Positions 9,626 to 59,089 of a stretch of DNA of 64,000 bases are shown one piece after another. The notes below the pieces were generated by a model. It was given only the letters and a program-made list of their open reading frames with translations. It searched no databases and was not told the DNA's origin. Location: contig JAWQUS010000017.1 in NCBI GenBank assembly GCA_036365455.1, positions 9,424,001 to 9,488,000 of the forward strand, written 5' to 3'. The stretch's first letter is position 1; each line of letters opens with the position of its first letter. The DNA comes from Macrosoma leucophasiata. Lineage: Eukaryota > Arthropoda > Insecta > Lepidoptera > Hedylidae. Both the position numbers and the translations under genes were made by a program.

Positions 9626-9665
9626 GCAATAGCTAGTTACTTAAAAATACGTAAAGCATACTTAC

Positions 9666-35344: not shown

Positions 35345-35825
35345 CTTTTGTGTTGTGGTTGTCTCTTTAGTTATAAAATATCTCTGAGTTCAGTGTGCCT
35401 CTTGGCAAAGGCCTCCTCTAACAATTTCCATTGTACTCTGTCTCTAGCAACCCTTCTCCATTTTGGGCCTGCGGTCAGTTTTAGTTCATCTTCCCATCTT
35501 TTGCTTTGTCTTCCTCTGTTTCTTCTCCCATCTCTAGGGTACCAGTCTGTTATGATCTTGCTCCACTTATCCTGTGTACCGCGCAGCATGTGCCCAGTCC
35601 ATCTCCACTTCAAACTATCTATTCTAGTAAGTACGTCTGTGACTTTTGTCTTACTTCTTATGACGTTGTTTCGTATCTTATCTTGTTTCTTAGTACCTAT
35701 CATACTTCGTTCCATAGCTCTTTGGCAGTGTTCCAGCATGTTTCTGTGATGTTTCGTAAGAGCCCAGGTTTCACATATGTAATACATGGGAGAACGCAGG
35801 TATTGAAGACTTTCCTTTTGATACC
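35345..35825 (-). pseudogene. RTE-type LINE, 3' end only, inserted in viral DNA
   Basis: The minus frames read KVFNTCVLPCITY, then ICETWALTKHHRNMLEHCQR, LKWRWTGHMLRG, RWEDELKL and LLEEAFAKRH, the C-terminal third of an RTE-like ORF with one frame change near 35,785. An ATAAT tract lies just left of the 3' end (about 35,303-35,315). The right edge abuts the coding sequence of the RPB6-like ORF, so it is a 5'-truncated insertion or a rearrangement joint. Confidence 0.8.
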
Positions 35826-36058
35826 TTGTTGCGGCGTGATCGAATCCGTCGCTCCGGCGGCGGCGAATACCGATTTTGGAAAGTACGCCTTGTTGGTGGC
35901 CACGTACAGCGGGCCGTCTAGGTACGGGTGGGTCGCAAACAGCGTTCTGGAGCGCGCCGCGTCCTGCACAACTTGACGATGCGCGCCATTTCGTACGACG
36001 ATATGAGCCGTTTTCCTTCGAGGTCAGACCGCGTTATCGGCTCGATCCTGTACTCCAT
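35826..36058 (-). pseudogene. RPB6-like RNA polymerase subunit fragment (virus-like)
   Basis: ATG at 36,056-36,058 on the minus strand opens EYRIEPITRSDLEGKRLISS and YEMARIV. A single frameshift near 35,970-35,985 moves the reading to the frame containing DAARSRTLFATHPYLDGPLY and VATNKAYFPK. The order 'YE-AR-(hydrophobic)' followed by 'PL-VA' and a hydrophobic end is reminiscent of the RPB6/omega family, small subunits of multisubunit RNA polymerases also found in several large DNA viruses. The LINE at 35,345-35,825 cuts off the C-terminus. The start lies directly beside promoter cassette A. The family assignment rests on short similarity and could be wrong. Confidence 0.4.
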
Positions 36059-36085
36059 GATGATGAGGATGATGATGATGATGAT

Positions 36086-36360
36086 GATGACGTCATATGA
36101 TTAGCAATGCGTGTGTCGCTCTTCGCAGTTGACGAGCGACTGAGCCGTTTTCGCACCCCCCACTCTGAAATTGTGAAAATGTATGGAAGGTGGGGATAAC
36201 CTTGAAATTTCCTATATAAAGAGCGATAGCTTCGCGCGCGACTCACTTCTAATACGGCAGTTGTCCATGTTTAAGGTATTAGAATTAACTGAGCCCTGAC
36301 GCTTGCCAGTAAGAATTTATAAATAATATATAATGTATTATATTTTATGATTCCCAATTT
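36086..36360. promoter_or_regulatory. Promoter cassette, copy A (divergent)
   Basis: 275 bp, nearly identical to 39,675-39,950 (copy B); its left 110 bp match 38,638-38,749 (copy C). Contains GATGACGTCATATGATTA at the left edge, a TATATAAAG box at 36,213-36,221 pointing right, and 'ctaatacggcagttgtcc' downstream of it. The minus-strand RPB6-like ORF starts 28 bp to the left and the plus-strand acidic ORF starts 42 bp to the right, so it fits a shared divergent promoter. Confidence 0.6.
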
Positions 36361-36401
36361 CTGCGCCCCAGCGCCACTGCCTGCACCCCTCATATGTTTT
36401 A

Positions 36402-36882
36402 ATGTCCTTTTGCGTCACCGATTTCGACGTGTGCACCAGTCTAAATCTTGCCGGCTCGCGAACCTGGCGCACCAAAATAAGCCGTCCCCTCGGCTCTATC
36501 AGCTCACACAAATGGTGTTCTATGTGTGATAATGTTTGTTGGAGCTTGGAGGAAACACGGCAACTGGCTTCAACATCACACCACCGTTCCGTTCCTCGGC
36601 GACAACAACCACAACAACGACAACGACCCAAAGGTGACGCTCGCTGATCTCTGTTCGGCGATAGAATATTGGATCAAGTTGGAACCCATCTACGCGAAAC
36701 ACCCTCGCCTCGCGCTCACGAATGACGACGAGGACGATGAGGATGAGGACGACGACGACGACGACCAAGATAGTGTCGATGGGGACGAGAAATCTTGGAT
36801 TTTAGTCAACGAAGCACCAGTAAAAGTACGCTTCGATAGGTGGTTGCGAATGCCACCGGGGATCGACAGTATAACTATTTAG
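36402..36882 (+). pseudogene. Small acidic ORF, frameshifted (virus-like)
   Basis: ATG at 36,402 starts one plus frame (SFCVTDFDVCTSL, ISRPLGSI). The second plus frame ends at 36,882 and carries KVTLADLCSAIEYWIKLEPI, a run of Asp/Glu (about 36,720-36,775) and WILVNEAPVKVRFDRWLRM. A frame change is needed somewhere in 36,530-36,630. It lies downstream of the TATA box in cassette A and converges with the 553-aa gene, whose end is 91 bp away. An ORF on the opposite strand (36,338-36,631) overlaps but fits the layout less well. Function unknown. Confidence 0.45.
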
Positions 36883-36972
36883 GTGCTGTTGTCGTTGTAC
36901 AAGAGTCAAACAAGTTTTCAAACATTCCCGCTCACCGCATGAGCCGTGCCGTATTTTTTACATTCGAGTCTT

Positions 36973-38634
36973 TCATTTTAAACTCTTGAATTTTTTTGCC
37001 CGCGGGCTGTGAGTGTCCGTCGAATCACTCGCGTCGTCATGATCGTCACTTTCTACATCATCACCATCACCATTGTCGACGACGGAGAGACGCGCCGACG
37101 CCGCCAAGCGGTCTCGGCGCTCCCGCTGCTCCTCCTCCTTGTCGTCGTCGTCGTTGTCGTCGTTGTCGTCGGTGCCGGTCTTTGATCCGTTGCACCAGAC
37201 GTACCGCACCCGCAGCGTTCGGTACAGATCAAAGATGAAGCGCGCCCGGTGCGCACCCAGAAACGGAACGGGTTCCGATTCTTGCGATTTGAGGTACACG
37301 GTCACGTTCAGGTCGTTGAGCATCATGATTATGCGCGTCAACTTGTCGAGTTTCATATAACAGTGGGTTTTGAACTCGCTCGACTGGTTCTTCAAAAGGT
37401 AATAGGTGCACTCGCCGATGCGAGCTCGGCCGTCGGACGACTGCGCCACCGTGTTGGCGGACCACTCCTTGAGTTGTATCAGCGGTCGCCGCGACAGCAC
37501 GCTGAAAGCCGACACGAGCACGTCGGGTACGACGCCCTCCACTTTGTACTTGTCCAAGTTGGCGAACACGCACAGCCCCTTTTGACCGCTCAAATTGCTC
37601 AGTTTCATGCCATCGTAGCGAGGCACGCGATACTCCAACTCCAGCAGCATGTACACGTGCGAATTCACGCGCGAGATTCGCACTCGAGTCGTGATTGCGT
37701 CCAAACTCACGTCCAAGAGGCTGGCGTGCGCTAACGATTTGTACACCACGTACACGTTCTTGTCGACCTCCATCAGGGACAGCTTGCAGCCCCAGGGGAG
37801 GACGATCGGCCGCGGCGAATAGACGGTCGCCAGGGTGACGATCAGAAGGTCGCGCCGACGACCCGCTTCGCCGGCGTCGACGGTTTGGCGCATCTTGTTG
37901 TGCGGCGGGCGGTGGCGGATCACGACTTGCCCCTCGTGGTGTGGCATTGTGAGGTCGTACTTGTTCTTGATGAGCAAGTTGAAATTGAGCCGTTCGTTCA
38001 CCGCGTACGCGTCCTCGTTGAGCATGGGCGAGGTGCAGAAGAGCGTCTTGAGACGGAACGTCTCGCCGTCGAACGGCACGAGCTCGTCGCACCGCGCCGC
38101 ACCGCACTCAAACTGCGGCAGCTGGCCGTCTTGGCACACGTACACTGCGCTCGTCGCCCGCGATCGCAGCTGTGTCATGGCGCTGATGCTCTTGGACACC
38201 TCCTCGTATCGGTGGTGCGGTTCGAGAGGGGCCGCCAACAGGCTCAGGCAGGCGAGCGACCGCGAAGCGTACACCGACGGGAACAGTACGCGGAGCTCCC
38301 AATGCGTCAGATGCAGCGGTCGCTGGGCGCCGCCGAACGACGCGAGGTCGACGCGTTTCAAAGGAGTACCGTTGATGCTGGCGACGGACACGCGGCTCAG
38401 ACGCTCGTCGAACCGCACCTCGAGTATCTCGTCGGCCGGGTGGCAGTCATTCTGGCCGTCACCGTCTCCGTCACCGTCACCGTCCTCGGATTCGGCAATG
38501 TACGGCGTCTCGCAGTGCACGTCGTTCGAGGGACACGCGGAGAAACCAAAGCGATCGATTTCCATCAAAGAGTCAACCACGGCGTCGTAGTCGTCGATGT
38601 AATTGATCAAGTACGCCTCGGACGCTGCGTCCAT
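36973..38634 (-). CDS. Intact 553-residue acidic orphan protein (virus-like)
   Basis: A full minus-strand ORF with ATG at 38,632-38,634, directly beside promoter cassette C. Residues 1-60 include an alternating Asp-Gly stretch (about 51-60). The middle (about 70-480) looks globular, with beta-type patches such as MYHxx-free hydrophobic runs and EGVVPDVLVSAFSVLSRRPL. About 490-512 is an Asp/Glu-rich linker. The C-terminus is again acidic and ends in a basic RAKKFKSLK that could be a nuclear localisation signal. No catalytic motif recognised. An acidic tail plus a nuclear signal would suit a DNA- or chromatin-associated viral protein, but that is inference. Unlike most neighbours it has no stop or frameshift. 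Confidence 0.7.
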   Translation of the reverse strand: MDAASEAYLINYIDDYDAVVDSLMEIDRFGFSACPSNDVHCETPYIAESEDGDGDGDGDGQNDCHPADEILEVRFDERLSRVSVASINGTPLKRVDLASFGGAQRPLHLTHWELRVLFPSVYASRSLACLSLLAAPLEPHHRYEEVSKSISAMTQLRSRATSAVYVCQDGQLPQFECGAARCDELVPFDGETFRLKTLFCTSPMLNEDAYAVNERLNFNLLIKNKYDLTMPHHEGQVVIRHRPPHNKMRQTVDAGEAGRRRDLLIVTLATVYSPRPIVLPWGCKLSLMEVDKNVYVVYKSLAHASLLDVSLDAITTRVRISRVNSHVYMLLELEYRVPRYDGMKLSNLSGQKGLCVFANLDKYKVEGVVPDVLVSAFSVLSRRPLIQLKEWSANTVAQSSDGRARIGECTYYLLKNQSSEFKTHCYMKLDKLTRIIMMLNDLNVTVYLKSQESEPVPFLGAHRARFIFDLYRTLRVRYVWCNGSKTGTDDNDDNDDDDKEEEQRERRDRLAASARLSVVDNGDGDDVESDDHDDASDSTDTHSPRAKKFKSLK

Positions 38635-38637
38635 GTT

Positions 38638-38749
38638 GATGACGTTATATGATTAACAATTTGTGTGTCGCTCTTCGTAGTCCACGACCGACTGAACCGT
38701 TTTCGCACCTCCCACTCCGAAATTGTGAAAATGTATGGAAGGTGGGGAT
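38638..38749 (-). promoter_or_regulatory. Promoter cassette, copy C (short)
   Basis: Matches the left 110 bp of cassettes A and B but lacks the right half with the TATATAAAG box. It begins 3 bp upstream of the ATG of the 553-aa gene, so the sequence 'gacgttatatgattaac' sits immediately before that start. Confidence 0.6.
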
Positions 38750-38984
38750 TTGCAAAAAGATCTATCACAGTTGAGTGGTTGAAAAACTAAAACGAAACAT
38801 CTTTACCGTATGATATGAGCAAGCACGCTTCGATTTCACATTTTCTATTGTAATGTAAAATATTATATGTACATGAAATGTTCTCATAATTTTGCGGTGC
38901 CCCTACGGGGTGTTACATGTAACTACAAAATATTTAATTGTAATTGTACTGTGGTCATCTCTTCGAAAGTCAAGTGTGTGGTCA

Positions 38985-40225
38985 GAATCCTTTTGAGATG
39001 GTGCCCGGAAAGGACCGTCCGCGTCACCGAGTAGGGTACGGTGGTGCAAAACTCTCGCGACTCAGTTTGTGAGACATGGGATGGAATGCGGATTCGCCGC
39101 GAGAGTAGGCGAGACGAAGGATCGCGGCGAGACCGGCTTTGATCCTGCTCGCGAGTATGGCGCGATGGGCGTGACTGACATTGCGGGCCGAAAGACAAAC
39201 ATTTTTTTTGTAATAAACATGAATTAAAGACTCTACTTCCTTAAATAATCTTACCCGTACTCACACATGCAACAGTTTGGACACTTACCTGAAACAAACA
39301 AACAACAATAATTAATCATATGACTTGTATTTAGTTCTTGCGCGCGAGTCGTAAAGTCGATTCAGGCAAGACGAGGATCGCAGCGCGAGACTAGGGGAAC
39401 TATAGGATGGAACGTGGGTGCGCAGCGAGAGTAGGCGAAACGACGATTGCGGCGAGACCGGCTCCGATCCTGCTCGCGAGTACGTTGCATGGATGCGACT
39501 CGTTTCTCTCGCGACACCCGTATTTGCAGCGAGAGTAGGCGAAACGAGTCATCTCTAGACGTGTAGGCTAGACGAGGATCGTAGCGAGACCGAGTTTGAT
39601 CCCGTTCGCGAGCATGTCGCATGGGCGTGATTCACCCGCCGTCATATCAGAGACTTGTGACTCTTGTACATTGTGATGACGTCATATGATTAGCAATGCG
39701 TGTGTCGCACTTGGGAGTCGACGAGCGACTGAGCTGTTTTCGCACCCCCCACTCCAAAATCGTGAAAATGTATGGAAGGTGGGGATAACCTTGAAATTTC
39801 CTATATAAAGAGCGATAGCTTCGCGCGCGATTCACTTCTAATACGGCAGTTGTCCATGTTTAAGGTATTAGAATTAACCGAGCCCTGACGCCTGCCAGTA
39901 AGAATTTATAAATAATATATAATATATTATATTTTATGATTCCCAATTTCCAGTTTCTGTCAGAAAAATCTGAATAACACTTTTTATTTTGGGCCCGAAT
40001 CTGAGACCGTCGGTCTGTAGGGAAAGATCGAGCGACCACTAGACCAGAGACAACAAAAGTAAGCAGTGTACGCTTCACAACTCATCGAATGACTAGATGC
40101 CGGCGCGCGCTGTGCGAGGCATAGGATGGTACGTGGGTGGGAACGCGGACAGTCCGCGTTGCCGCATAGGGTACGGGCGAAAGTCAAAGTCAGTGCAAGG
40201 TATGGGATGGAACGTCGAATTGCTC
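38985..40225. repeat. Homologous-region-like interspersed repeats in the viral block
   Basis: The motif GCGAGAGTAGGCGARACG occurs at 39,099-39,116, 39,425-39,442 and 39,529-39,546, with an inverted relative near 39,497-39,512. 'gcgagaccgg-t--gatcctg' followed by 'ctcgcgagta' recurs at about 39,126, 39,450 and (diverged) 39,580. 'atgggatggaa' or 'ataggatggaacgtgggtg' recurs at about 39,076, 39,399, 40,122 and 40,203. Promoter cassette B lies inside this tract. There are no long ORFs. Tracts like this serve as enhancers or replication origins in baculoviruses and relatives; here that role is inference. Confidence 0.65.
39675..39950. promoter_or_regulatory. Promoter cassette, copy B
   Basis: Nearly identical to cassette A over its whole length, including TATATAAAG at 39,802-39,810 and the 3' 'ttatgattcccaatttc'. 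No intact ORF begins right beside it on either side; the next plus-strand ORF starts at 40,435. Confidence 0.6.
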
Positions 40226-40434
40226 GAGCACGGTGGCAAAAAAATGTACAAAATAAAATAATACTAATATCAATCGTTGAACTTGTTTCATTTTCACCTC
40301 CATCCTCACCCATCCGAGGCGTAGAAACGAGGCGATCGTTCCTTGGGTATTCCTCACGCGCCGCCACCTTCGAGCCGAGGATTGGAGGCGCGAGTAGACG
40401 GTCACGGTCTGTTTAGGCGCGAGCCACGTTCACG

Positions 40435-40927
40435 ATGGGAAATTGTTGCAGTTTAATTACAAATCCACCAAACCGTCATCCGTCCAACTTTTTTGTCGCT
40501 CGTCCGGCCGCGTTTAAAGTTCTTGGATATGAGCCGGGCCCTATATTGAGGAAGGTGCGGAACTCGATCGGGACGTCGACAAAAAGTAACACACACACCG
40601 GTGGCGGTCACTTTGCGGGATTTCCTACTTGGCTACTACGTGAACGCTGCTCGTGGCCGCTACGACGAGGTAGCACCCGGAGCCGGCGCAGTTGAGCGAA
40701 CCGAGCGCTTTCCCGTCTTGCGCTGTCAGCTGAAGCTGGTTGTTGGCGGCGGGCTTGATGTTCGATGTTTGTGGGGAAACATCACGAATCCGTGCGTCAT
40801 CGGTCTGTCGCCGTCGATAGCGCACTCTAACACGTTCACGGCTTTTAAAATCATCGGCTGCCCTTTGAACGTGAAACCCTGGACGTCTATAATAAAGTCG
40901 CCCATTATTGTATCGTGTCGATTCTGA
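40435..40927 (+). pseudogene. MGNCCS-type lipidated protein ORF, frameshifted (virus-like)
   Basis: ATG at 40,435 opens MGNCCSLITNPP. Gly2 with Ser6 fits the N-myristoylation consensus, and the adjacent Cys pair fits dual acylation as in peripheral membrane proteins. The first frame stays sensible to about 40,590. Between about 40,590 and 40,625 the reading must shift to a second frame carrying VTLRDFLLGYYVNAARGRYD and CQLKLVVGGGLDVRCLWGNI, ending at 40,927. Expected intact length is about 160 residues. Several DNA viruses carry small acylated proteins for envelopment, but homology is not claimed. Confidence 0.5.
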
Positions 40928-41011
40928 TGAATACTCTTACTACGTCCGCTGCAGATCCTACTTACTTATAGATTAATCTATTTGAATAAAATGCCCTTCG
41001 CGGAACGTTGA

Positions 41012-41594
41012 CTACGACATGAAGGCGTTTTGACTAATATCGTTAACGTCCTCGTTGTCCTTCTTCAAAACTAGCGACGGATATTTTCCCTTACTTTCTC
41101 TGGTCTCTGCCGGCGTCACGGTCGTCGGGGTCGTTGGGGCCGATGAGTGATCTACTTTTACCCGTTTACCGTACAACATGTCGTAAATGCTGCTTATCGG
41201 TCGTTTTTCTGGAATGCGAGAATTGAGATCGTCGCTTCGCAAGGCGGGTAGCATGCGCGGTAGCTTCTTTGTAGCCATATTCAGTTCGGGCACGTACAAT
41301 GACTCGCTGTTGAGATTGGGGTGGCTCATCCTCGTCACCACGGGATACATTTTCGCGACGTCCGCCGAATTGAGCCACGCTTCTTTAGCTTGCATAAGAA
41401 ATATATTCAAGTGCGGCACCAACATGTGTCTCCCCACTGTGACGGGTAGAAACGTGTACGTTTCCAAGATGGTCTGTGTGTAGGACGGCAGTAGGTTGCA
41501 ACACCCCGGTACCAGCTTTATGTCCGCGTTCGGCGGCGGGATCGTCTCGAACGCAAAGTATTGATTCAGTATAGTATTCAGTACACTTCCACCT
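41012..41594 (-). pseudogene. Virus-like ORF, about 194 codons, 5' end missing or shifted
   Basis: The minus frame is open from just inside a stop near 41,595 to the stop at 41,012, but has no ATG at its start. It contains YFAFETIPPPNADIKLVPG, HMLVPHLNIFLMQAKEAW and a Lys/Ser-rich tail. A second minus frame (41,690-41,385) with an ATG at 41,690 could hold the true start if a frameshift lies near 41,560-41,600. A TTATAAAA box at 41,670-41,677 lies between this gene and the plus-strand gene at 41,690. Function unknown. Confidence 0.45.
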
Positions 41595-41689
41595 TAATCT
41601 AGACATACGGCGCAGTATATGCCTGAGCCAATACCGCCCGCCGCTCCCCTCCCCACTCCTCTCCCTCGAGTTATAAAATGACCCGCGCA

Positions 41690-42159
41690 TGGTGACCGAC
41701 TTTCATTCGATGTGTGTCATGCGGTGGATCGACTTGGAGGACGCTGTAGCGCTCAATTTTATATTGGACTCGAAATCGCATCTGCAAGCGCTATACGCCT
41801 CTTCAAATTTTCGTATTCATCATACGTTCGATATGCGATCGCTTTGGATAAAAATCACCAGAGCCCGCGAGTACAACTTTCGGTTCTGCGACCGGCTGCA
41901 AAAGTGTTCCAGACGGTTAGTCTTGTCGCCGATACCATCGACTCTGTTTGCGCGTCAATTGGAAATCTTTCTGTGGTTCCAGCACGACGATCGGGGCCGG
42001 AAACGTCTGACGGGCTGTTTGCGCGTAACGGGCAAGTCACCTGAACTTGTGAAATATTTGAATCTGACCGAACACACCCGAGATACTGACGATGGCCGAG
42101 TCGAACGTCGAAGCGGTGAACTCGAATGGTGCGACCAATGGGCAACCGGCGTATCTTAG
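41690..42159 (+). CDS. Small virus-like protein, 156 residues, unknown function
   Basis: ATG at 41,690 and an open frame to 42,159. The last 68 bp overlap the start of the helicase ORF at 42,092, typical of compact viral genomes. Middle residues (ALYASSNFRIHHTFDMRSLW, IKITRAREYNFRFC) look protein-like. The C-terminal part beyond the overlap is hydrophilic and may not be conserved. No domain recognised. Confidence 0.45.
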
Positions 42160-43927
42160 ACAGACCGATACGTGGGAGAGTTTGCTGATGCCCTATCAGA
42201 TGGAAGTGGTGTATTACCAAAAACCGGCGAGCCGCGGCGTGTCCAAATCCATCTACGACTACGTGGTCAACGGTGAGCTGCATTGCGCGCCGCACACCCT
42301 TTCGCTGGAGTCTCTCAACCAGTACACACCCCCGGTGACGCGGACCGCGAAGCGGCAAATGGTCGCGGGTTCGAGCCAATATCTTCTTTCTCTACGCAAA
42401 TTCTCGGAGCCGGCGACGACGAATCCACCTCGGCTTAAAGCACCGAGATTGATAGCTTTAATGAAAAGGGCGAACACTAAAGCCGTAAAGGAGTACCAGG
42501 AGGCCGCGCAAGACGGATTCCCGGCTCGATACCGACCGACCGCGACGCTACTGAACGACTACGATCTGAACGCACCGCGTCCGTGGCGCAAGTCCGGCGA
42601 CATGAAACCGACCGAGACGCAAGCGGTGATACTCGAGCACCTTGCGCGATCGACCGCGCACTCATCCACGTACGGAACTACGATCCTCGTCGAAGGCCCG
42701 GGAGGTTCCGGCAAATCGCAGATGATTGGATTTTTGCAAGACGCGGGCCGTCACGTTTTGTATTGCACCGTGAAAAATTCCCTGTGCACATGTCCAACAC
42801 GTTCGACTGCAGGAGCGTGACGTTCGCCTCGCTGTTTTTAAGTCTATTTCGGCTGCGCGTTGAAGAGGGCTTGTATGACTTTCAATCGACCGTCAACGGT
42901 CTCGAATTGGACACCGTCCAGGCGTTGTTCGACGCGGCCCGTGAAACGCAACTGACGGCAAAGTGGTGTTTCCACCCGGACATTGACACTCTGATCATAG
43001 ACGAGTACTCAACGTTGGCCGTGTCCATGCTCAAATTGGTGCTGCTCAGCTTGCAACACGGACGAATGGCGACCAAGAGGCGATTGGACATTGTGCTCTT
43101 GGGTGATCCGTACCAGCTGCCTCCCATTCAATACCGATACGAGGAAAACAACTTTCTGGTGCGCAATCTGGTCGATCGTGTTTTTCAACTGAGAATTGGT
43201 TTCGTACATGCCGAATCAAGTGTGGGCGGACCGTAGCGTCGTCCAATTGACTTATCCGTTCGACGATCCCATGCCGGAGTGCCGTTTCACCGATAACGGA
43301 ACGGACGTGTCGCCGTTTTCCGGAGAGATATTTGCAAATTTTGCGCTCGTCAACAAGGCGGAGATTAACGAGTGGCTGGCGCGTTGGCACACCACCATCA
43401 ACGACACGCTCTTATTGGCGCGGCGCAATATTAGCGTACACCGACTCTGCATGACCTACTCCCATCTGATCCACACGCACTCGCCGGATAGCGTCGAGTT
43501 TGTGCCCATTCGATTCGTGGCGCAAAATCAACGGGGCGAACGATTCACCATCGTTTCGTTGTTCAAAAAGGACTGTGCGCCTCTGTTGCCGTTGATACGC
43601 GGCGCCGATTACGTTTTCATACAAAACGACAAGGCCTGCAAGAGAGGCGAGATCTTGACGTACTTGTGGCGAAACCACAAGCGGCTGGTGATGCGGGACG
43701 CGCGCGGTCTTTTGGTCAGCGTGCAACCTCAGCTATTCCAGATGCGACTGTTTTGCGCCAACAAACATGTATATTTGAACGCTCTGGATCCGGTAACGAG
43801 AAAAAAGTACGGGCCGAAAATGACGTCGCGCGAGCTGTACGATTACCCGCTTCAGTTGGCCGTCGCACAAAACATATATCAGTGTCAGGGACGCACTTTT
43901 ACTAATAAAAAATTGTCAATTAATTAA
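42092..43927 (+). pseudogene. SF1 (Pif1/RecD-like) helicase, two frameshifts and lost C-terminus
   Basis: Three consecutive plus frames make one helicase. Frame 1 (ATG 42,092 to about 42,780) has a basic linker and Walker A (VEGPGGSGKSQMIGF) at about 42,690-42,720. Frame 2 (about 42,780-43,200) has Walker B (TLIIDEYSTL, 42,988-43,016) and motif III (LLGDPYQLPPI, 43,099-43,128). Frame 3 (about 43,200-43,927) has a long insert and a motif V-like AQNIYQCQGRTF (43,868-43,903). The stop comes right after, so the arginine-finger motif VI is absent. The family unwinds DNA 5'-3' and occurs in cellular Pif1 and in several large DNA virus replication systems. The breaks make this copy non-functional. 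Confidence 0.75.
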
Positions 43928-44003
43928 AAAATATACTCAAGTTATAATGCTAAAACAAAAAAAAAGACAGGTTAAAATTTTCAACAAACTAAAAAAACAG
44001 ACA

Positions 44004-47000
44004 CTATTTGTTGGTGCACGTGCCTGTGCGGTGGCAGCGTACGGTGCACAGGACGCCGCTTCTTCGGCACGAGCATCTGGCGGTAGCGCACTGCTGTTTG
44101 CAGTAGCACCGAGTCATCCCTTGCCCACCGAACTGGGAATGCTCGAAGACGGCCTGTCGGAGATTTAGCTTTCTGTCCCGGCGCACCGACTCGGGCGGCA
44201 CCATTGGGTGCTCGACGCACTCGAACTGGTTCGGCGATAACCAACGGTCGAGCTCTCCGTGCGGTGTGGCCACGCGGATCTGCAGTGTCGCCGCGCTCAC
44301 GTCGCCCTCCTCGCCGTTGCTCGCGTGTCGCACTTCGAGCACGCACGCCAGTAGGTTGCGCGCGTCCAACGGGCCTCGGTCCAGCGCCGGCACGAACACG
44401 CACACTGTATCATTCACTGCGGGTGGCGGGAAGGCTGCTTGTGTTTTGCGCAACATTCGCGCCGCCTGTCTCGTCAGGCATCGCCGAGCCAGAGCGTGCG
44501 CACGTCTTCTATCGTCCTCCGCGTTCACGTTGTCGTCGTCATCATCATCGTCGTCGGCGTCCACTTCCATTGGCTCCTCGTCCCCCGCACCGTCATAGTT
44601 CTCCTCCGCAGCACCCGATTCGGCGGCGGCCGTATCGTTAAACGCGACCAGCTGCTCCTCGGTCTCGACGCCCGAGATGTCGTCGATTCTCGACAACGTT
44701 GCAAGTCCCCGCTTCGCTGTCATGCCGAACACGCACTCGTACGGAGATTGACCGATGCTGGAGTGTAACGCCGTGTTGTAATTGAATTGTACCGTAGAGA
44801 GACCGGCGCTCCAGCTTTGCTGTTCTCGTATGGCCACCCAAGTCGCGAGCATCTGTTTAATGTCACGGTTGGCCCTCTCCACGGAGCCCTGGCTTTGGCT
44901 GTGGCGCGGCGCACCGTGTACGATGCGAACGTGCGGCCATTGCGCCACCAGCGTCTCGATTACCGCGTTGCAAAATTCACGCCCATTGTCAGACTGGAGA
45001 ATGCACGGCGCGCCAAAGGTGTGGAAGACGTCCGATAGCGCGACGGCCACTTCCTCCGCTTGCTTGGTCTTCAACGGCCTTATCTGCACAAATTTCGTGA
45101 GATGGTCTTGGTAGACGAATATGAATCTCCAGTCGCCATCGGGGCAAGACTGCATGTCGATCAGATCCACCTGACACCGATCGTTGAACGTCCTCTCGAC
45201 GATGGGTTTCACGACGCGACCTTTGTGCTTGTTAGTCTTCTTTGCGGCGCAGATGCAACACAATTTCAAATAAATGTTGATGGCTTCGTAGGTGACGTTT
45301 TTGTAGTGTTTTTTCAGCTCGTACATCATGCGATTTCGTCCCAAGTGGCCCATCGTGTGAGTGGCGTGAATGGTGTAGAACAAGAAAAATAGGTAGGTAG
45401 GTTGGTGATCGATAGTACGTAACGTGATAAGTGAATAGTAAAGTTGATTAAATAAAAAACGTACAAAAAAGAATATGGGTAAGGAAACTTGCTTCATTTC
45501 ATGTAGGTAGTACCCGAATCCTAAGTTTGCGACGGCGAGCTAGGTGCTGACTCGCCAACTCTGATTGGCGGACTGCCCATAAGCAGTCAGCTTCGTCGGT
45601 TATCACTGCATAACATCCTGGAGACCTGGAAAGTTATATAAACGATCGTCAAATATGACTACATCGTCGACAGCAGTTGAAGTATTTTTGAACGTTAATA
45701 CCTACCTACCTCCCAACAGCAATGGTATTACAATTTTCTTTAGGCTGTGGTATTCATATTTTTGCATTGGCAAATTATTTTATATATTATTTTTCCTCTT
45801 ATACAATATTAAATTATATCATTATGAAAAAAAATATAAATATAATAAATTTCTAATTAACCATTAGCAGTTTTTAATTTAAAAAAAAGTTACCTTGTAT
45901 TTGCGGCCTTCAAACATATAATGCAGTAGTAGGTATATAACAAGGACGTTCTCCATTTTGTTTATATCTTTGTTTATTTTTTCTTTCGCCCTTTCCATAT
46001 GAATATCATTAACTGCCATAGCGTTCCTCTGTAAATTACATAATAAGGATATATGTATAGGTACATAGTGATCATAAGGAGAATTGTTCTCATAAATAAT
46101 TCATACAAGATGAGTCCACAAACCTTTGTAACGTTGTATACACGTACTACGCCGTATCACTTGTATGGATTGGTACCATGAGTGAAGTATTAAATACTTA
46201 ATATGCCCACAAATATCGGACGTAAGTTACCTTAACGCGGTTTCACGTACGCGACACCGGCGCATCGGCATCGCAATAAGGCCTGCTGCGCTCGGCCGGT
46301 TGTTATCGCGCTGTGGTGCCTGAGGTGGGGATGACGCACCACTCCCGGTGACTCCCGGCTCCCGGCGATCGACGCGCCATCGCACAATTGCGTTATAATT
46401 CTTTGATTGCATATTATTATTATGATATTTAATAAGATGTTTTTAATCTACTTATATTTTATTTACTTTGGTATTAATCTATTTATTATTGTTTGTACCT
46501 ACTAGTATGTATTACATTTATCGTTTAATTAAGTATGTTATTTTAATGGCTTATTATCTGTTTTAAATCCGTATGTATGTACCTTGTATAAGTATTAGTA
46601 CAATTATCCTTTATTATAAATTTGACATCCGTGGTTCACTCACTAAGGGTCCTGTTGAAAACCAGCGTCAGGTACCTTTTATATGAAGGTACCTGACATT
46701 TGCTGAACAGGACACCTTTTTGGCAGCCGTGAGACACATATTACGTGTATAGTTATGTATTAATTTTTAGAAAATGTGTTGTTTTTTCTCTGTTACCTGT
46801 TACGTTTTATGTCTGTTTTATGTGTCTCGCTGTGTGTCAAATAAATGTTTCTTATCTTATCTTATCTAACAGTTCTTCTACGGCGACAAAAAACAATCGT
46901 GAGTCATCGTGGGCGGTACACAACCGGCTGCCGCATATGTCGTACCGCCGCAGACGCCTCTGCCTGGTCTTGGCCGAAAGCTTCATGATGGTGCTGCCGG

Positions 47001-47169
47001 GCGACTTGGCTTCTCGCACTTCGGTCATCAGACGGCTATATCGGTCGCGGTGCAGATACGACAAATTTGACAAATTCTTCTTAGCTCTCAACGCATTATT
47101 TAAAACTTCATAGAACGCTCGCTGTGTTTCGTTCGATGCAGATTCGGATGCTGATGGTGGAGAATCCAT
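44004..47169 (-). pseudogene. Retroviral-type integrase (KRBA2/SCAND3-like) with CXC-like tail, split by an insertion
   Basis: The N-terminal part (47,169 to about 46,872) has FYEVLNNALRAKKN and KSPGSTIMKLSAKTRQRRLR, as in KRBA2-like integrases. The rest (45,382-44,004) has an H2C2 zinc finger (HTMGH...C-x2-C), then the catalytic triad: Asp in CQVDLIDMQ, Asp in LQSDNGREF and Glu in GSVERANRD, about 36 residues apart. After it come an acidic linker with eight Asp, a beta-rich segment (NDTVCVFVPALDRGPLDA) and a cysteine-rich end starting CYCKQQCATARCSC that resembles CXC DNA-binding domains. The 1,485-bp insert (45,383-46,867) has a 4-bp AACA duplication. Without it the two pieces total 1,677 nt, exactly 559 codons, in one frame. 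Such enzymes insert linear DNA into chromosomes. Confidence 0.8.
45383..46867 (+). mobile_element. Insertion inside the integrase gene, with TTATC tail
   Basis: Bounded by AACA at 45,379-45,382 and 46,868-46,871. The right end is 'cttatcttatcttatct', a short tandem tail as in some non-LTR retroelements, so it reads on the plus strand. It contains a GC-rich patch at 46,220-46,390 and otherwise AT-rich, non-coding sequence. It could be one non-autonomous element or two nested ones. No protein recognised. Confidence 0.65.
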
Positions 47170-47380
47170 GACGGTGCGGAGGGGTTTCGTACTTGGTTAG
47201 TTGTGGAACACGGTAGACAGTGGAGTATTTGATGCGTCACTGAACGGTGTTCTTCATTATATATATTTCGTGAGTCTTAGTCAGTGGGGCGTTATAGATA
47301 GTGAAATATACGATCCACCAATGAACGACGTTTTACGTTAGGTATATTCATTTCGTGAGTTCTTTCAACTTGTGGTCGGT

Positions 47381-47630
47381 TTAACTCGTAGCCGGCGCGC
47401 CGACCGTAGCAGGCAGCGGGCGCTCCTCGACTTTGCAAGCGGTCACGTTCATTATGGAAATGTACAATTGGTACACGACGAGCGCCAGGGACGTTAAATT
47501 CAAAAACACGTACAAGTGTTTACACTCGCCGCTGCTTTGCGTGCACGAAAATATCAATAGCACCCCTACTACTAAGCTACACACAAGCAGATACTGGGGG
47601 TGTTTGTGACACGGTATCGGAAACTGACCG
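47381..47630 (-). CDS. Small membrane-protein ORF (virus-like)
   Basis: The minus frame is open from about 47,630 to TAA at 47,381-47,383. It has no ATG; a GTG lies at 47,582-47,584. Two hydrophobic stretches (YLLVCSLVVGVLLIFSC and LTSLALVVYQLYISI) predict two membrane passes, separated by a Cys-containing loop. The plus strand opposite is also open, so the coding strand is not certain. Start not resolved. Confidence 0.35.
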
Positions 47631-47643
47631 TAAGATCATCTTA

Positions 47644-48033
47644 GTGTTATCAGTGGCGCTTTTGATGTGGGGTTTGCGCCGATCACGGAAACTGCCCAGC
47701 AAAAAGATATTACCACCGGCCATCTCATCGACGATGACCGCGACAGATTTTCGGCTCAAACTTCAGCCTGCCGCGACGAAAGTAGTGGACGCTAGGCCGA
47801 CGACGGCCGGAGGGACAAAGACGGGAACGGTCGTGGACGGTTTCGTGTATCCGTGTGTTAAATCTTACGCACCCTTATTCGGTTACTCAAAGTTGACCGG
47901 CTACACCACCTTCATACCGGCCCCTAATGGTGACTACATCACCGGCACTATAGCCTGCCTCAAAGATAACGAGCTGTACACACCCGCCGCCGCGCTTGTG
48001 GACAGCATACAAGCAGAGCATACAAGCACCTAA
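47644..48033 (+). CDS. Single-pass membrane protein ORF (virus-like)
   Basis: A plus frame ending at 48,033. A hydrophobic segment (IILVLSVALLMWGL, about 47,635-47,676) is followed by basic residues RRSRK and a soluble domain (DGFVYPCVKSYAPLFGY, PNGDYITGTIACLKD). The frame stays open to the left beyond the listed start without an ATG, so the start may be upstream or lost. The topology suits a type II or signal-anchor protein. Function unknown. Confidence 0.4.
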   Translation: MLSVALLMWGLRRSRKLPSKKILPPAISSTMTATDFRLKLQPAATKVVDARPTTAGGTKTGTVVDGFVYPCVKSYAPLFGYSKLTGYTTFIPAPNGDYITGTIACLKDNELYTPAAALVDSIQAEHTST

Positions 48034-48046
48034 TGAGATGTGACAA

Positions 48047-48185
48047 ATGAATTATACAGTAACGTCGTCGACACGAACCGATGACGACGCTCGAGAGCTT
48101 GCTGGCGACAACGACTCGAATGGACGCTGCTACGCCTTAGCCGTGTCTCGGGTCGCGATGAATATTAAACCAAACTTTTTTATTC
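48047..48185 (+). pseudogene. Virus-like ORF truncated by a BEL element
   Basis: ATG at 48,047 opens an acidic start (TRTDDDARELAGDND). Near 48,185 the same frame runs into BEL gag sequence, so the original C-terminus is lost. Confidence 0.35.
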
Positions 48186-49700
48186 GCCGCTCGGTCATAT
48201 TTAAAACCGTTTTAAGAAATCCACGCGCTTTAACCACTTTGCAAGAGCCGACTGAATCGTGGGGATCGATAATGATTTACCTAATTACTTCGAAATTAAA
48301 TTTAGAAACAGAAGTCGATTGGAAAAATACCAAAGGTCCCTACAGGCCGATAGAAAAATACTGTTAAACGATTTGCTTACGTTTCTCGATAATAAAGCTG
48401 ATACATTAGACATGATTAACGCGAACCATAATAAATCGTTAAATAAATCTCCTAATAATCTAAACTCAGTTAAAAATCCGCAAAAATCCGAACAGTTCCG
48501 AATACTCAGTTGCGTTTCCACTACAAACACCGGTTCAAAAAGCAAATGCGTTAACAATCATCAAACTAAACGCTTTGCTAGTTGTCTTGCATGTAACGAG
48601 AATCATGCACTATATATAGGTCGCGCCAGGTAAAAAGAACGCTGGCGGTCAAGCTGCGCATCATGTGTTTTTATTTCATTTTATGTTATTCTATGTAATA
48701 TAGTTTTCAATCTGCCTACCAATACACGAAACCGCAAGCGAAAGCTAGATCAAAAATAAACCAATAGGGCTAGTACTTTCGTGCGCGAGTGTACCGATGC
48801 GCGAACACATCCATTCTACTTTCTTCCAGCGTTCTTTTTACGTGGCGCGACCTATACGTGTCATAAGTTTTTAAATGTATCTATCAAGGACCGAACTAAA
48901 TTTGTAGACAATAAACACATATGTCTTAACTGTTTACGCGCGGATCATGCACTTTCCGATTGTTTATTCGGACCATGTAAGCAATGTCATAAGAAACATA
49001 ACACTCTTAACCGCGTATGGGCTTATGTACACCGCTTTATAATAAATCCACGTAGCTGTGTCATTCGCAAGGACGAACTGACGATGCAAACCGGTCCTCT
49101 CACAGCGGACGAGCTCGTACATTGCTAGTCAGAATGGCACAGCGTGAATCTTTTCCGCATTTATACGAATGTCTTGTTAACAATCAGCCTATGAAATCAA
49201 ATGCTAAGGAAATTAGTCTTGTTGCTGATTTAAATGTGTCTTTTAGATGGTAAAAGTCTTATTCGTATCGGTGATAGACTTGGTAATTTCTGTAGTTATA
49301 CGTATCATAAGAAGCACCCGTTGTTATTGTAATTAAACATTAATTATTCGTCTTATTAGTCAGGCGTGAACACTAGCGTTTATTTCTCGTTGGTTCAGTT
49401 AGTTTTATCTACTTACGTGAATCTTTCTGGTTATTGAATTCAAGGAACCTAGCTAGAAAAGTAGTGCGTGAATGTATTACTTGTACGCGTATGAGAGGCA
49501 AGACGTTGGTTGGAATATATGTCTTTTTTATATTATATGTTTACCACGAAGGCTATTTACTTGGAATTATTCACTGGTCTGTCTTCTGAAGACTATATTT
49601 TAGCATTAAAACAATTCATTATTCGACGAGGTAAATCAAGCGCTATTTACTTCGATAGTGGTAAAAATTTATTGGAGCTGCCAAAGAAAGCCTAGGTATA
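48186..49700 (+). pseudogene. Decayed BEL/Pao retrotransposon, plus strand
   Basis: Pieces in order: gag (VLRNPRALTTLQEPTESWG, then LLNDLLTFLDNKADTL), zinc knuckles (NKHICLNCLRADH, CKQCHKKHNTL, 48,900-49,010), then a jump to the integrase region with the zinc-binding part (49,440-49,510) and an AIYFDSGKN version of the second Asp motif (49,640-49,672). Protease, reverse transcriptase and RNase H are missing. Each piece aligns in order with the polyprotein at 50,151-55,097. Confidence 0.8.
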
Positions 49701-50150: not shown

Positions 50151-53100
50151 TCATGCATCTTCTTGAAGAAGCGGGCAGATCTTGGCGAAACTTCGCCGAA
50201 CGACGCCCGAAGCTGTTTTTATGTCAGCCACTCTCGCGATACCATCCTTGCCCGGGATTGTAGCTAACACTCGCCCCATGCTCCATCTTAGGGGTGGAAT
50301 ATTGTCCTCCTTTATTAATACAAGCGAGTCTGTCTTCAACTCCCTCGAATCTTTGGTCCATTTCTTTCGCATCTGCAACTCAGTCACGTACCCTTTGGAC
50401 CACCGTGTCCAAAAGTGCTGGCGTAATTGCTCCGTCCTCTGATACCGGTTCAGCCGATGCGCGGATATGTCGCTGTAGTCTTCACAGGCTGGTGCAGTAA
50501 GTGGTCGACCAACCAAAAAGTGACCAGGGGTAAGAGGGCAAAGGACATTGGGATCTGAAGAAAGAGGAGATAGCGGACGGGAATTTAGGATAGATTCAAT
50601 TTGTGACAACAATGTATATAATTCCTCGAACGTGAGGCGTGCGTCTCCCATCACACGACGCAAATGATGTTTGCAAGACTTTATGCCTGCCTCCCACAGA
50701 CCACCAAAATGCGGAGAATACGGGGGAATAAATTTAAATTTTATTTGTAAACAAGATGCGAATTCAATCAAATTTGGACTACATTTGCGCAAAAAATTAG
50801 AAAAGTCATTCATCAGCCCAACAAAATTTCGTCCATTATCTGAATATATCTCTGTCGATTTACCACGGCGAGATATAAACCTTTTCAGCGCTGAATAATA
50901 TGCCTCTGTAGTAAGATCACTGACTGGTTCCAAATGTATAGCACGCGTTGCAAAACAGACAAATAGGCAAATGTATGCCTTAGACATTTTAGCGCCCCTA
51001 CCCTTACGGTTTATAATGAATACTGGCCCACAATAATCCACTCCGCATGTGTTGAAGGGAAAACTGGGAGTTATCCTTTCTTTGGGTAAGTTTCCCATAT
51101 AAGGTGTAAGAATTTTACCCTTCATACGCGTACATACAACACAAGCGTTTACTATTCGCCGAGCTAAATTTCTACCACTTAAAGGCCACCACTTTTCGCG
51201 TAAGTGGCATAGTAATGCCTGAGCTCCTGCGTGTAGCAGCTGTAAATGCTCATGTCGGAACAATAATAGAGTAAAATCATGTTTACCAGATAACAATATA
51301 GGGTGCATTTTATCATAGCTAAATTCGTTGGAATTTCTTAATCGTCCACCTACTCGTATAATTTTATTTTTGTCTAAAAATACATTTAATTTTATTAAAT
51401 TGCTATTATTTTTAACATTTGAACTATTAAGTAATAATTTGTATTCATTCGGATAACTTTCTAATTGTGACCACCTAACCAATGTCATCTCTGCTTCATG
51501 TAACTCATCAACACTAAAAACACCCGTGCGGTATTCCATTTTGTAGCGAATATTGTGTATGAAACGTAACATGTAAGCTACCGTGCGCTGTATACGTTTA
51601 TATTGCGAAAATCTATCAAACGGAAACAGTGATGAATCAGATGAATCGTGAGTTAGAAACGATGAGATAGGCGATCTTAGTTCGGGTATGTCTTCGCATG
51701 TCTCTTTTACAGTAAAATCGTTAAGTGAGTAACTATGACATCGCAAAAAACCTGGACCTTCCCACCATAAAGTGGAAGAGGCCAGTTCGTCTAAGTTCAA
51801 TCCTCGCGATGCGAGATCTGCGGGATTCTCTTTAGTACTCACATGACGCCATAAAACACCTTTAGTTATGTCATGGATTTCTGAAACTCTATTTTGCACA
51901 AATGTTTTCAATTTATTTGGTGACATGTTCAACCAGCCTAGCACTATAGTTGAATCAGTCCAAAAAACTACATTATTAAATTTGCAAAACAACGAACTAC
52001 GTACCTTATCATATAGCTTACAGCCTAATAACGCACCACACAGCTCAAGTCGCGGTATACTCGTAGGCTTCAGCGGTGCGACCTTAGCTTTAGACATGAG
52101 TAATCTAACTGATATTGTTTGGTCTGTATTTACTGTGCGTATATAAACGCAGGCACCGTATGCAGTCTGCGATGCGTCACTAAAAATATGCATTTCTATA
52201 TAACTAGGTTGACTACCTACAATGTGGCGGGGAACCCGAATACTATTGAGCTTCTTTAATGAAAAAACAAACCGGTTCCACGTTTTTGCAACATTAGATG
52301 GCACTACGTCATCCCAATCTATTTTAAGCAGCCATAACTGCTGCAACAGTACCTTTGCCATTATAATCGTAGGGCTGAGTAAACCCAGAGGATCGAAGAT
52401 TTGAGATATATTCGATAGTATAAACCTTTTCGTGATTGGTTTATTATCATTATTAAATTGCGTGTTAAAATAAAATTCATCATTGACATTATTCCAGAAT
52501 AATCCCAAAGTCTTTGTGCTTAAATTTTCATTGTTTTTAAATTCTATAAATTGATTAGGCAAATTATTGTTATCATTGCATGGAAAATTATACATCCACT
52601 TTTGAAGTGGAAAGCAACCTGAAAGTAATGCGTCTTTAACGTCGGCACATAGTTTTAAGAGAGTAGATTTATCATCATGGCCTGTTAAAAGATCGTCAAC
52701 GTAAAAATCATCCCTGATTACCCTCTGCACTTCGGGGTTAGTAGATTCGACACCCAACTGCTTCAAACATCTGACGCTCAAGAACGGCGCAGATGCGGTG
52801 CCGTAGGTAACCGTATTTAACTGATAAATACCTAATTGTTTCGAGGGATCATCACGCCATATTACCAATTGCAAATTACGTTGCGATTTATTTACCATAC
52901 AATTTCTAAACATTTTGACAACGTCTGCGCATACAACGAATGTATGTTGCCTAAACCTTAATAAAATGGAAAGTAAATCACCCTGAATCGGTGCGCCGAC
53001 TAACTGTAAATCATTAAGTGACCTTCCAGATGAAGAAGGGGCACTCGCATCAAAAACTACGCGTAACTTGATCGTAGTGTTATGTTCACGGTAAACACCG

Positions 53101-55097: not shown

Positions 55098-55447
55098 AGC
55101 ACGATAGATATTTTTTTTTGCATATAACTATATGAATATATATCTATGTTTTATAGGTATCATAACTAAATAGTTGAGATACACTATTGGTAAGGTATGT
55201 TGAGAACCATAGGACGCTCATAAAAAATGCGAGCATAGCCACATCCCCACCGTATCCCAAATTCAGAAAAAAGGATGGATATATAAAGGGAACTAGAACT
55301 AGATGAGTCCTCGTGGCTGCGCGCGCGAGCGCGCAGCCGCGGAAAGGGTCGAGGTGAAGCCTCCTTACCCTGGCTTTCTGCCCTTGCTTGCCAAGGGCGT
55401 GATCTGAGTTAAGGGGTGGGTGTCGTGCGTGCTAGGAATCACCGGGG

Positions 55448-58680: not shown

Positions 58681-58697
58681 CTAACCTTGGTATATGT

Positions 58698-59057
58698 TTA
58701 TAGGCTCGCAGGCCAGTTTTGGATCCGGGTCAGCTCTGCCAACCCCCTAACAAGGGCGGGTACAATGTCCCGTCCGGCCGTATACGCCGTCAGTATCTCC
58801 GTCAGTGTGGCAATAAAAATCCCCACTAACGTGGACACCGACGGGTCACCTCTGGTTGTATTGACGTAACTGTTGGCGGAAACTCCCCGAGACGCGGCAG
58901 CGTGCCCGGCTTGCGGGCCTGTGTACGCATGCCTGGCAGTCCCGGCGGACCACTCACCATTGTCCAACCTCCACGCGGGCTGTAGGCTGGATGCAGGGGC
59001 GACGGCGGGTGCGGCGGGGGAGGCGGGGGCGGTGGAGGCGGGGGCCGCCGGCGGGGC

Positions 59058-59089
<32 letters not shown>

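What the first reader, a model, noticed from the sequence alone, without database searches (positions are those of the whole stretch)
35826..48185. A 12-kb gene-dense virus-like block embedded in moth-type repeat DNA
GC-rich, densely packed and divergently arranged ORFs stand out from AT-rich surroundings. The block combines an SF1 helicase, a KRBA2-like integrase with a cysteine tail, an RPB6-like fragment, an intact acidic 553-aa orphan, an MGNCCS protein, small membrane proteins, repeated promoter cassettes and homologous-region-like repeats. I know of no named insect virus or Polinton/Maverick element with this set: no PolB, capsid, packaging ATPase or cysteine protease of Polinton type is visible. 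It is bounded by younger LINE and BEL insertions, so it is a fragment of something larger.
Basis: partly seen in the sequence, partly recalled or inferred. Interest (0 to 1): 0.92.

Follow-up and report, generated by a model that had tools for sequence, protein, structure and literature searches.

The report
Virus-derived giant jumping element in moth
The block is a decayed copy of a roughly 115,000-base virus-derived mobile element that carries its own DNA polymerase, RNA-polymerase genes and an integrase, and that also sits in the same insect genome in three nearly identical long copies, so it shows a large insect virus living like a transposon.

Summary
The gene-dense block is real and is a truncated, rearranged copy of a much larger element. 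The genome holds three near-identical long copies of 114.5-118.2 kb (0.20-0.45 % substitutions over the pieces compared). Each has inverted terminal repeats (TGTTACGG..., perfect over 28 bp) with TATA on both outer sides; two of four TIR-bounded copies limit the duplication to 4 bp. In the 101.7 kb of one copy that I read, in pieces, lie genes for family B DNA polymerase, Ac81 (66 bits, cut-off 25), an RNA-polymerase largest-subunit relative, SF1 helicase, ribonucleotide reductase, AAA+ ATPase, PD-(D/E)XK nuclease and a DDE integrase. The 553-aa 'orphan' is an in-frame-deleted form of a gene of about 1001 codons that most likely encodes the second RNA-polymerase subunit: LEF-8 E 0.02, Rpb2 domain E 0.15. 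All eight PolB relatives found among 5.8 billion proteins are unnamed. Pfam PIF and PIF2 found nothing (inconclusive). Best reading: a Lefavirales-related virus that captured a transposon-type integrase and spreads as a giant transposon, an insect counterpart of crab endogenous nimaviruses. My paper searches listed no such report in moths.

The parts
35826..36058 (-). N-terminal fragment (about aa 1-81 of 630, frame broken) of the RNA-polymerase largest-subunit relative
   Evidence: the genome search with the C14 protein and tblastn
36085..36361 (.). 277-nt repeat cassette; 24 copies of at least 250 nt in the pieces of one long copy, all in one orientation; this copy lies just upstream of the RNA-polymerase fragment
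36356..36547 (-). fragment (aa 15-78) of a 227-aa element protein of unknown function
36973..38634 (-). 553-aa ORF, an in-frame-deleted form (about 1.27 kb missing near window 38422) of a gene of about 1001 codons in the long copies; most likely the RNA-polymerase second-largest (LEF-8/Rpb2) subunit
   Evidence: residues 230-490: only PDB hits up to E 10 are two archaeal Rpo2 chains, E 0.21 and 0.28, only Pfam hit RNA_pol_Rpb2_6 E 0.15; N-terminal half of the C14 gene: only Pfam hit LEF-8, E 0.02, 13.6 bits under a cut-off of 27; size; Ka/Ks 0.24 against C14 over 401 codons
38633..38749 (.). 117-nt part of the repeat cassette, directly upstream of the 553-aa ORF
39674..39950 (.). 277-nt repeat cassette
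40628..40905 (-). fragments of two small element genes (160-aa protein C-end; 155-aa protein N-end), joined by a deletion relative to C14
41015..41581 (-). 189-aa element protein of unknown function, matched over its whole length
   Evidence: 96 % to the C14 copy
42092..43969 (+). SF1 helicase (695 aa in C14a) broken into three frames here
   Evidence: Pfam AAA_30 35.0 bits, Viral_helicase1 28.6 bits on the C14a protein
43917..44003 (.). approximate place of a deletion of about 3.1 kb that removed the Ac81, 220-aa and 200-aa genes present in the long copies
44004..45407 (-). DDE integrase, residues 87-572 of 572, with the cysteine-rich tail
   Evidence: rve and Integrase_H2C2, tblastn
45383..46864 (.). 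1.48-kb insertion inside the integrase gene, absent from C14a and C4
46858..47127 (-). DDE integrase, residues 15-104
47635..48033 (+). 134-aa element protein (membrane-protein-like N-end by eye)
   Evidence: 98 % to the C14 copy
48200..49473 (.). left-terminal side of the element; matches C14a in pieces up to 48709 and C4 up to 49473. The terminal 1.5 kb with the inverted repeat probably lies outside the window at C17:9499721-9501168, pushed away by later insertions (inferred)
35371..35787 (-). ORF adjoining the left break, LINE-type by eye; not part of the element
50151..55127 (-). BEL/Pao retrotransposon, later insertion; not part of the element
   Evidence: Pfam Peptidase_A17 E 5e-53

Best explanation
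The block is a decayed, internally deleted copy of a virus-derived giant mobile element of about 115 kb. Shown: the long copies are bounded by inverted repeats that begin TG and end CA, sit between TATA and TATA, and encode a DDE integrase, a family B DNA polymerase, Ac81 and RNA-polymerase-subunit relatives. Inferred: the element descends from a virus close to the order Lefavirales that captured a TE-type (KRBA2-like/Ginger-like) integrase; its own polymerase replicates it in the nucleus; the integrase binds the inverted repeats and joins the linear DNA to TATA or (TA)n targets with a 4-bp staggered cut; its RNA polymerase transcribes late genes, perhaps from the 277-nt cassettes. Whether it still makes particles or now moves only within the genome is open. 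The window copy lost most of this through deletions and later transposon insertions.
For: Copies and ends: the terminus pattern gives 16 places, 0 in the reversed control; three pairs lie 114.5-118.2 kb apart and one pair 14.4 kb apart. Five left ends share the terminus with different flanks; all four TIR-bounded copies have TATA on both sides, and C26 and C16 limit a duplication to 4 bp. Integrase: rve 26.2 and H2C2 22.8 bits, both under their cut-offs, E 1e-5 and 1e-4; D, D and E kept in 117, 118 and 118 of 119 aligned sequences; of 537 relatives the 120 listed that carry names are mostly 'KRAB-A domain-containing protein 2(-like)' of arthropods. Viral genes: PolB 75.1 bits, catalytic columns invariant in 9 of 9, stop-free over 1201 residues in all three long copies; Ac81 66.1 bits, cut-off 25, 0 of 14 control genomes; Rpb1 domain 2 E 1e-3, under its cut-off, best PDB chain vaccinia rpo147 E 0.25; LEF-8 E 0.02 and Rpb2 domain 6 E 0.15 on the two halves of the other subunit; RNR 81.0, AAA 88.8, PDDEXK_1 33.8 bits. 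17 of 40 element proteins had a match of over 70 % length and 80 % identity in the C14b or C26 pieces held (30 matches), none with an internal stop. Ka/Ks of relic against C14a is low for several genes: 0.24 (553-aa gene), 0.15 (Ac81), 0.14 and 0.19 (200-aa).
Against: The Pfam models PIF (recalled as PIF-1) and PIF2 found nothing in the whole genome, though pif genes are the signature of Naldaviricetes (PMC10271883, passages). The LEF-8 hit is under its cut-off (13.6 of 27 bits) and covers 53 residues; no LEF-9 hit came up for the largest-subunit protein. The PDB search with the N-terminal half of the LEF-8-like gene gave no RNA-polymerase chain among those listed (60 of 146; mostly glycine-linker matches). 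Ka/Ks is not low everywhere: helicase 0.49, 0.78 and 0.90 in window, C17b and C4; pooled 0.42, 0.67 and 0.48, partly inflated by alignments running past frame breaks. For the two C14 copies the duplication length is ambiguous because of TA runs. 16.5 kb of C14a was not read, and more of C14b and C26. No expression, particle or activity data.
Confidence: 0.82

Rival explanations
1. The three long copies are passive endogenisations or segmental duplications of an ordinary free virus, and the integrase gene has nothing to do with their integration.
For: Ant genomes hold many copies of genes of related viruses with rather conserved flanks, read by the authors as endogenisation followed by duplication (PMC12548425, section 12 read). 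The integrase relatives include plain insect TE/host genes.
Against: Flanks of the copies differ right up to the same terminal base, ends are inverted repeats with TG...CA, and TATA flanks both sides of all four TIR-bounded copies; duplication would carry flanks along.
Confidence: 0.08
2. A large exogenous virus of the moth inserts now and then by its own integrase, and the three copies are independent recent infections rather than copies made from an integrated element.
For: Open genes across the pieces compared, low Ka/Ks in several genes, and relatives in other data sets at 77-89 %.
Against: All three copies share a stretch with reverse-transcriptase-like ORFs (C14a about 5631.6-5635.2 kb) that is missing in the window and C4 copies, which suggests descent from one integrated copy; but viruses can pick up host transposons, so this is not decisive.
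Confidence: 0.3
3. A composite transposon in which a Ginger-type element simply swallowed viral genes that are now inert cargo.
For: The integrase branches inside the KRBA2-like family (supports 0.69, 0.95 and 0.98 on the enclosing clades); helicase Ka/Ks is not low (0.49-0.90).
Against: Replication and transcription genes stay open in the pieces compared, and PolB relatives at 31-88 % identity keep the catalytic columns, so PolB at least is maintained.
Confidence: 0.07
4. Assembly contamination by a virus genome.
For: GC and gene density differ from the host.
Against: Copies of different ages, 0.2 % to several per cent apart and some broken by retrotransposons, with termini on eight contigs; the six of these whose length I saw are 10-26 Mb.
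Confidence: 0.02

Closest known systems
Endogenous nimaviruses of sesarmid crabs (PMC10871703; abstract and passages read)
   Same: Large arthropod virus genome living as a giant transposable element, retroviral/Ginger2-like DDE integrase, inverted terminal repeats, insertion into (AT/TA)n
   Different: Crustacean hosts; nimavirids have PIFs but no lef RNA-polymerase genes (PMC10271883, passages); 46-bp terminal repeat of another sequence; intron-containing integrase gene. The moth element has Ac81 and RNA-polymerase genes and no PIF or PIF2 hit
Lefavirales and unclassified relatives: nudiviruses, filamentoviruses, AmFV, ant LGDVs (PMC10271883, PMC10259472, PMC4517127 passages; PMC12548425 sections 8 and 12 and passages)
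   Same: PolB, Ac81, virus-encoded RNA polymerase, sulfhydryl oxidase, ribonucleotide reductase (AmFV), endogenous copies in insects
   Different: pif genes; circular genomes; nudiviral integrases are tyrosine recombinases (recalled, and from a passage of PMC10871703); no inverted terminal repeats or TATA targets in the passages I read
Teratorn of medaka (PMC10175614, PMC5822658; search listing and abstract starts only)
   Same: Large DNA virus fused to a cut-and-paste enzyme, making a giant mobile element
   Different: Herpesvirus with piggyBac-like transposase, fish host, about 180 kb
KRBA2-like/Ginger-type integrase elements (names; Ginger recalled and from PMC10871703)
   Same: Integrase domains and, in the relative that I looked at (P0006), a similar cysteine-rich tail
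   Different: No viral replication genes are known to me in such elements (recalled); the distant integrase locus on C15 has none within 30 kb

Membership tests
Class Naldaviricetes | pif genes (signature genes) | tested here: inconclusive
   Pfam PIF2 and PIF (recalled as PIF-1): 0 matches in the whole genome, but nothing rang in the control genomes either; pif0 (PF04583, recalled) could not be run, tool busy; pif3 and pif5 not run as genome searches
Class Naldaviricetes | family B DNA polymerase | tested here: met
   Pfam DNA_pol_B 75.1 bits; three stop-free copies; not specific to the class
Class Naldaviricetes | p33 sulfhydryl oxidase | tested here: inconclusive
   227-aa protein hits Evr1_Alr at 24.0 bits, cut-off 27.6, E 5e-5; no baculovirus p33 hit was listed
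Order Lefavirales | Ac81 (listed for baculo-, nudi- and hytrosaviruses in PMC10271883) | tested here: met
   66.1 bits, cut-off 25; 6 places in the genome, 0 of 14 control genomes
Order Lefavirales | lef-8 | tested here: inconclusive
   Pfam LEF-8 is the only hit of the N-terminal half (E 0.02, 13.6 bits, cut-off 27); Rpb2 domain 6 the only hit of a C-terminal segment (E 0.15)
Order Lefavirales | lef-9 | tested here: inconclusive
   630-aa protein hits RNA_pol_Rpb1_2 at E 1e-3 under its cut-off; no LEF-9 hit listed
Order Lefavirales | lef-4 | not tested
   no lef-4 hit among the ORFs scanned, but 16.5 kb of C14a unread and no genome search run
DDE (retroviral/Ginger-type) integrase elements | D-D-E catalytic triad with zinc-binding N-domain | tested here: met
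   (domains under cut-off, E 1e-5 and 1e-4)
DDE (retroviral/Ginger-type) integrase elements | inverted terminal repeats TG...CA and short target duplication | tested here: met
   4-bp limit from 2 of 4 TIR-bounded copies
Polinton/Maverick or adintovirus | small size (tens of kb), capsid, protease and packaging-ATPase genes, 6-bp duplications (list recalled) | tested here: not met
   114-118 kb and at most 4-bp duplication in two copies; no such capsid, protease or packaging-ATPase family among hits of the ORFs scanned, 16.5 kb unread

The most novel reading that the evidence does not exclude
A new, possibly PIF-less lineage related to Lefavirales lives as an integrase-driven giant transposon in moths, still copying itself within the genome, with its own DNA polymerase and RNA polymerase; it stands between a large DNA virus and a transposable element and shows that capture of a TE integrase by arthropod nuclear DNA viruses happened independently in insects and crustaceans.
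Probability: 0.45. Interest if true: 0.9.

Novelty: new variant of a known kind. Interest (0 to 1): 0.82.

Why it matters
Giant transposons made from whole large DNA viruses are known from fish (herpesvirus plus piggyBac) and crustaceans (nimaviruses). A moth element of 115 kb with complete ends, open replication and transcription genes and copies only 0.2-0.45 % apart would extend this to insects, to another branch of arthropod DNA viruses, and to recent activity. It offers a direct test of how such viruses become genome residents, and a polymerase clade that the protein collection searched holds only as unnamed assemblies.

Tried and rejected
Polinton/Maverick: rejected by size, ends and gene set. 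C15 integrase locus (30-32 % identity): tblastn with 40 element proteins on the 30 kb around it found only the integrase, so it is an unrelated TE or host gene. IMG/VR: no PolB relative with the single protein or with alignment A1. AlphaFold2 of the 553-aa ORF alone failed (mean pLDDT 29.8), so no fold search was run. The 821-aa protein looked to me like an SF3 helicase by eye; Pfam and PDB gave no support, so I do not claim it. Rfam on 55-64 kb: nothing. Whole-genome searches with the 553-aa ORF and with pif0 never got an answer. Paper searches (the lists of 60, 61, 67, 105 and 106 were cut at 15 or 20 rows) listed no report of such an element in Lepidoptera; preprints are not held there.

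Full report
What is in the window. The block reported at 35826-48185 is real. It is richer in GC than the 35 kb to its left, dense in ORFs, and 35827-48524 aligns in pieces at 92-99 % identity to three other places in the same 616-Mb genome. The window is C17:9424001-9488000.

The full element. Comparing the other copies with each other showed homology far beyond the window's 12 kb. Five copies share one left terminus with different flanks. A search of the genome with that terminus (21 nt, up to 2 mismatches) gave 16 places against 0 for the reversed control: C14 5628300(+) with 5746494-5746514(-), C14 15177389(+) with 15291917-15291937(-), C26 2082121(+) with 2196781-2196801(-), C16 4345867(+) with 4360291-4360311(-), and eight single ends on C4 (two), C15, C17 (two), C20 and C28 (two). 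So three long elements measure 118.2, 114.5 and 114.7 kb and one deleted form 14.4 kb. The inverted repeat is perfect over the 28 bp visible at both ends of these four and begins TGTTACGGTGAATCTGAAGCC. All four have TATA on both sides; in C26 and C16 the matching flank stops at 4 bp, in the two C14 copies it lies in longer TA runs and is ambiguous.

Age and openness. Substitutions between the three long copies are 100 in 31,404 (0.32 %), 189 in 42,144 (0.45 %) and 66 in 32,975 (0.20 %) over the pieces held, repeat matches of 700 bases or more included. Of 40 element proteins compared, 17 had a match of over 70 % length and 80 % identity in the C14b or C26 pieces (30 matches), none with an internal stop; most of the other 23 lie in stretches that I do not hold for those copies. 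PolB is stop-free over 1201 residues in all three, the RNA-polymerase largest-subunit relative and the Ac81 stretch too. The window copy differs from C14a by Ks 0.061 and Ka 0.026 (pooled), so it is much older. With a rate of about 3e-9 per site and generation (recalled, from butterflies) the long copies would be under a million generations apart and the window copy around ten million; this is a rough guide only.

Gene content (about 101.7 kb of C14a, read in pieces). A greedy set of 62 ORFs of 120 aa or more covers 56 % of the 100 kb from 5630001 to 5730000, 35 on the plus strand (it includes reverse-transcriptase-like ORFs of an inserted element, and genes cut at piece borders). Above Pfam cut-offs: DNA_pol_B (75.1 bits), ribonucleotide reductase small chain (81.0), AAA (88.8), PDDEXK_1 (33.8), AAA_30 and Viral_helicase1 for the SF1 helicase (35.0 and 28.6), Ac81 (66.1). 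Below cut-off: rve 26.2, Integrase_H2C2 22.8, RNA_pol_Rpb1_2 19.8, DNA_pol_B_exo1 20.5, Evr1_Alr 24.0, Histone 22.1. Three members of a multigene family resemble MSV199 weakly (E 0.09-0.10). Most of the rest had no convincing hit.

RNA polymerase. The 630-aa protein carries an NADVDGD motif (my reading; the NADFDGD motif of largest subunits is recalled) and its only PDB match up to E 1 is the vaccinia largest subunit (E 0.25). The 553-aa 'orphan' of the window corresponds to a gene of about 1001 codons in C14a (5648456-5651461; open in both pieces that hold it, 515 and 486 codons); the window copy lacks about 1.27 kb of it in frame. The N-terminal half in C14a has one Pfam hit up to E 10: LEF-8, the baculovirus RNA-polymerase subunit, E 0.02, 13.6 bits under a cut-off of 27, residues 62-114 on profile 23-72 of 730. 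Residues 230-490 of the window ORF match only archaeal second-largest subunits in the PDB set up to E 10 (0.21 and 0.28), across G-K...GQKG...GVVPDV, and the only Pfam hit of that segment is RNA_pol_Rpb2_6 (E 0.15). Against: the scan of the whole 553-aa ORF and of the C-terminal part of the C14a gene did not show it, and the PDB search with the N-terminal half listed no RNA-polymerase chain (60 of 146 shown, mostly glycine-linker matches). Each value alone is weak; two RNA-polymerase second-subunit models hitting the two halves in the right order, with the partner subunit nearby in the element, make the reading likely (I would say 0.9, raised from 0.8).

Integrase. The C14a gene encodes H2C2 and rve domains and a cysteine-rich tail. 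Its two closest relatives (77 %) are unnamed; the other 118 listed of 537 are 34-53 % identical, and those with names are mostly 'KRAB-A domain-containing protein 2(-like)' of arthropods. In a tree of 119 sequences the element and its two relatives form a clade (support 1.0) inside that family. The D, D and E positions are kept in 117, 118 and 118 of 119 sequences.

Placement. PolB finds 8 proteins in 5.8 billion: two at 84 and 89 %, six at 34-40 %, none with a given name (a first search, limited to 7989 candidates, found only the two). IMG/VR gave none. Ac81 is listed for the lefaviral families in PMC10271883 (passages), which is the best placement evidence, now with the weak LEF-8 hit. Pfam PIF and PIF2 matched nothing in the genome, and pif0 could not be run. 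I therefore call the element related to Lefavirales, not a member of Naldaviricetes.

How it probably works. Integrase acts on the inverted repeats of a linear form and inserts it into TATA; PolB copies the DNA in the nucleus; the viral RNA polymerase transcribes part of the genes. The 277-nt cassettes, 24 of 250 nt or more in the C14a pieces and all in one orientation, directly precede both RNA-polymerase subunit genes and may be promoters or hr-like origins. Shown: ends, targets, genes, copies. Inferred: every activity. The three long copies share an inserted stretch with reverse-transcriptase-like ORFs (C14a about 5631.6-5635.2 kb) that the window and C4 copies lack, which favours multiplication from an integrated copy. 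Ka/Ks between relics and C14a ranges from 0.14 to 0.90 by gene (one 47-codon piece has no replacement change), low for Ac81 in C17b, the 200-aa gene and the 553-aa gene, higher for the helicase: a mixture of selection in a replicating lineage and decay after insertion is my reading.

The window copy. Relative to C14a it keeps the RNA-polymerase fragment (35826-36058), the deleted 553-aa gene, small genes, the broken helicase, an integrase split by a 1.48-kb insertion, and part of the left end; it lost about 3.1 kb with Ac81 between helicase and integrase. Its own terminus is probably C17:9499721-9501168, 93 % to C14a and in the right orientation, about 26 kb further right, behind a BEL/Pao element and a non-LTR element; this link is inferred. 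A second relic lies at C17 about 9519.9-9541.1 kb.

Against what is known. The nearest described case is the endogenous nimaviruses of sesarmid crabs, with a Ginger2-like integrase, 46-bp inverted repeats and (AT/TA)n targets (PMC10871703, abstract and passages). Ant genomes contain very many copies of genes of related viruses, integrase included (PMC12548425 sections 8 and 12; PMC10259472 passages). Eight paper searches listed nothing equivalent in Lepidoptera in the rows shown; the library holds no preprints and few subscription papers.

Noticed in passing
window 9633-11438 (-): 601-aa Asn-rich open frame without a convincing Pfam family (best E 0.12); nature unknown
   Followed up: partly
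window 55783-61130 (-): Non-LTR retrotransposon (reverse transcriptase and endonuclease in one ORF, a second ORF without Pfam hit) with GC up to 0.72, unrelated to the viral block
   Followed up: partly
C16:4345867-4360311: 14.4-kb form with both terminal repeats and a fragment of the RNA-polymerase gene: an internally deleted, possibly non-autonomous copy
   Followed up: partly
L009:8692-9076 (C14 5628692-5629076): About 385-nt stretch near the element's left end that matches more than 20 other genome places at 81-84 %: a small dispersed repeat inside the element
   Followed up: no
L030 (C14 5680001-5690000): Locally duplicated short ORFs and a 578-aa Thr/Ala-rich ORF; no family found for the latter
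   Followed up: no
L035:2808-3188: 126-aa histone-fold-like protein (Pfam Histone 22.1 bits, below cut-off) next to the 821-aa protein
   Followed up: no
L031:5075-6166: 363-aa lipase-like protein (by eye; Ser_hydrolase E 0.003, below cut-off)
   Followed up: no
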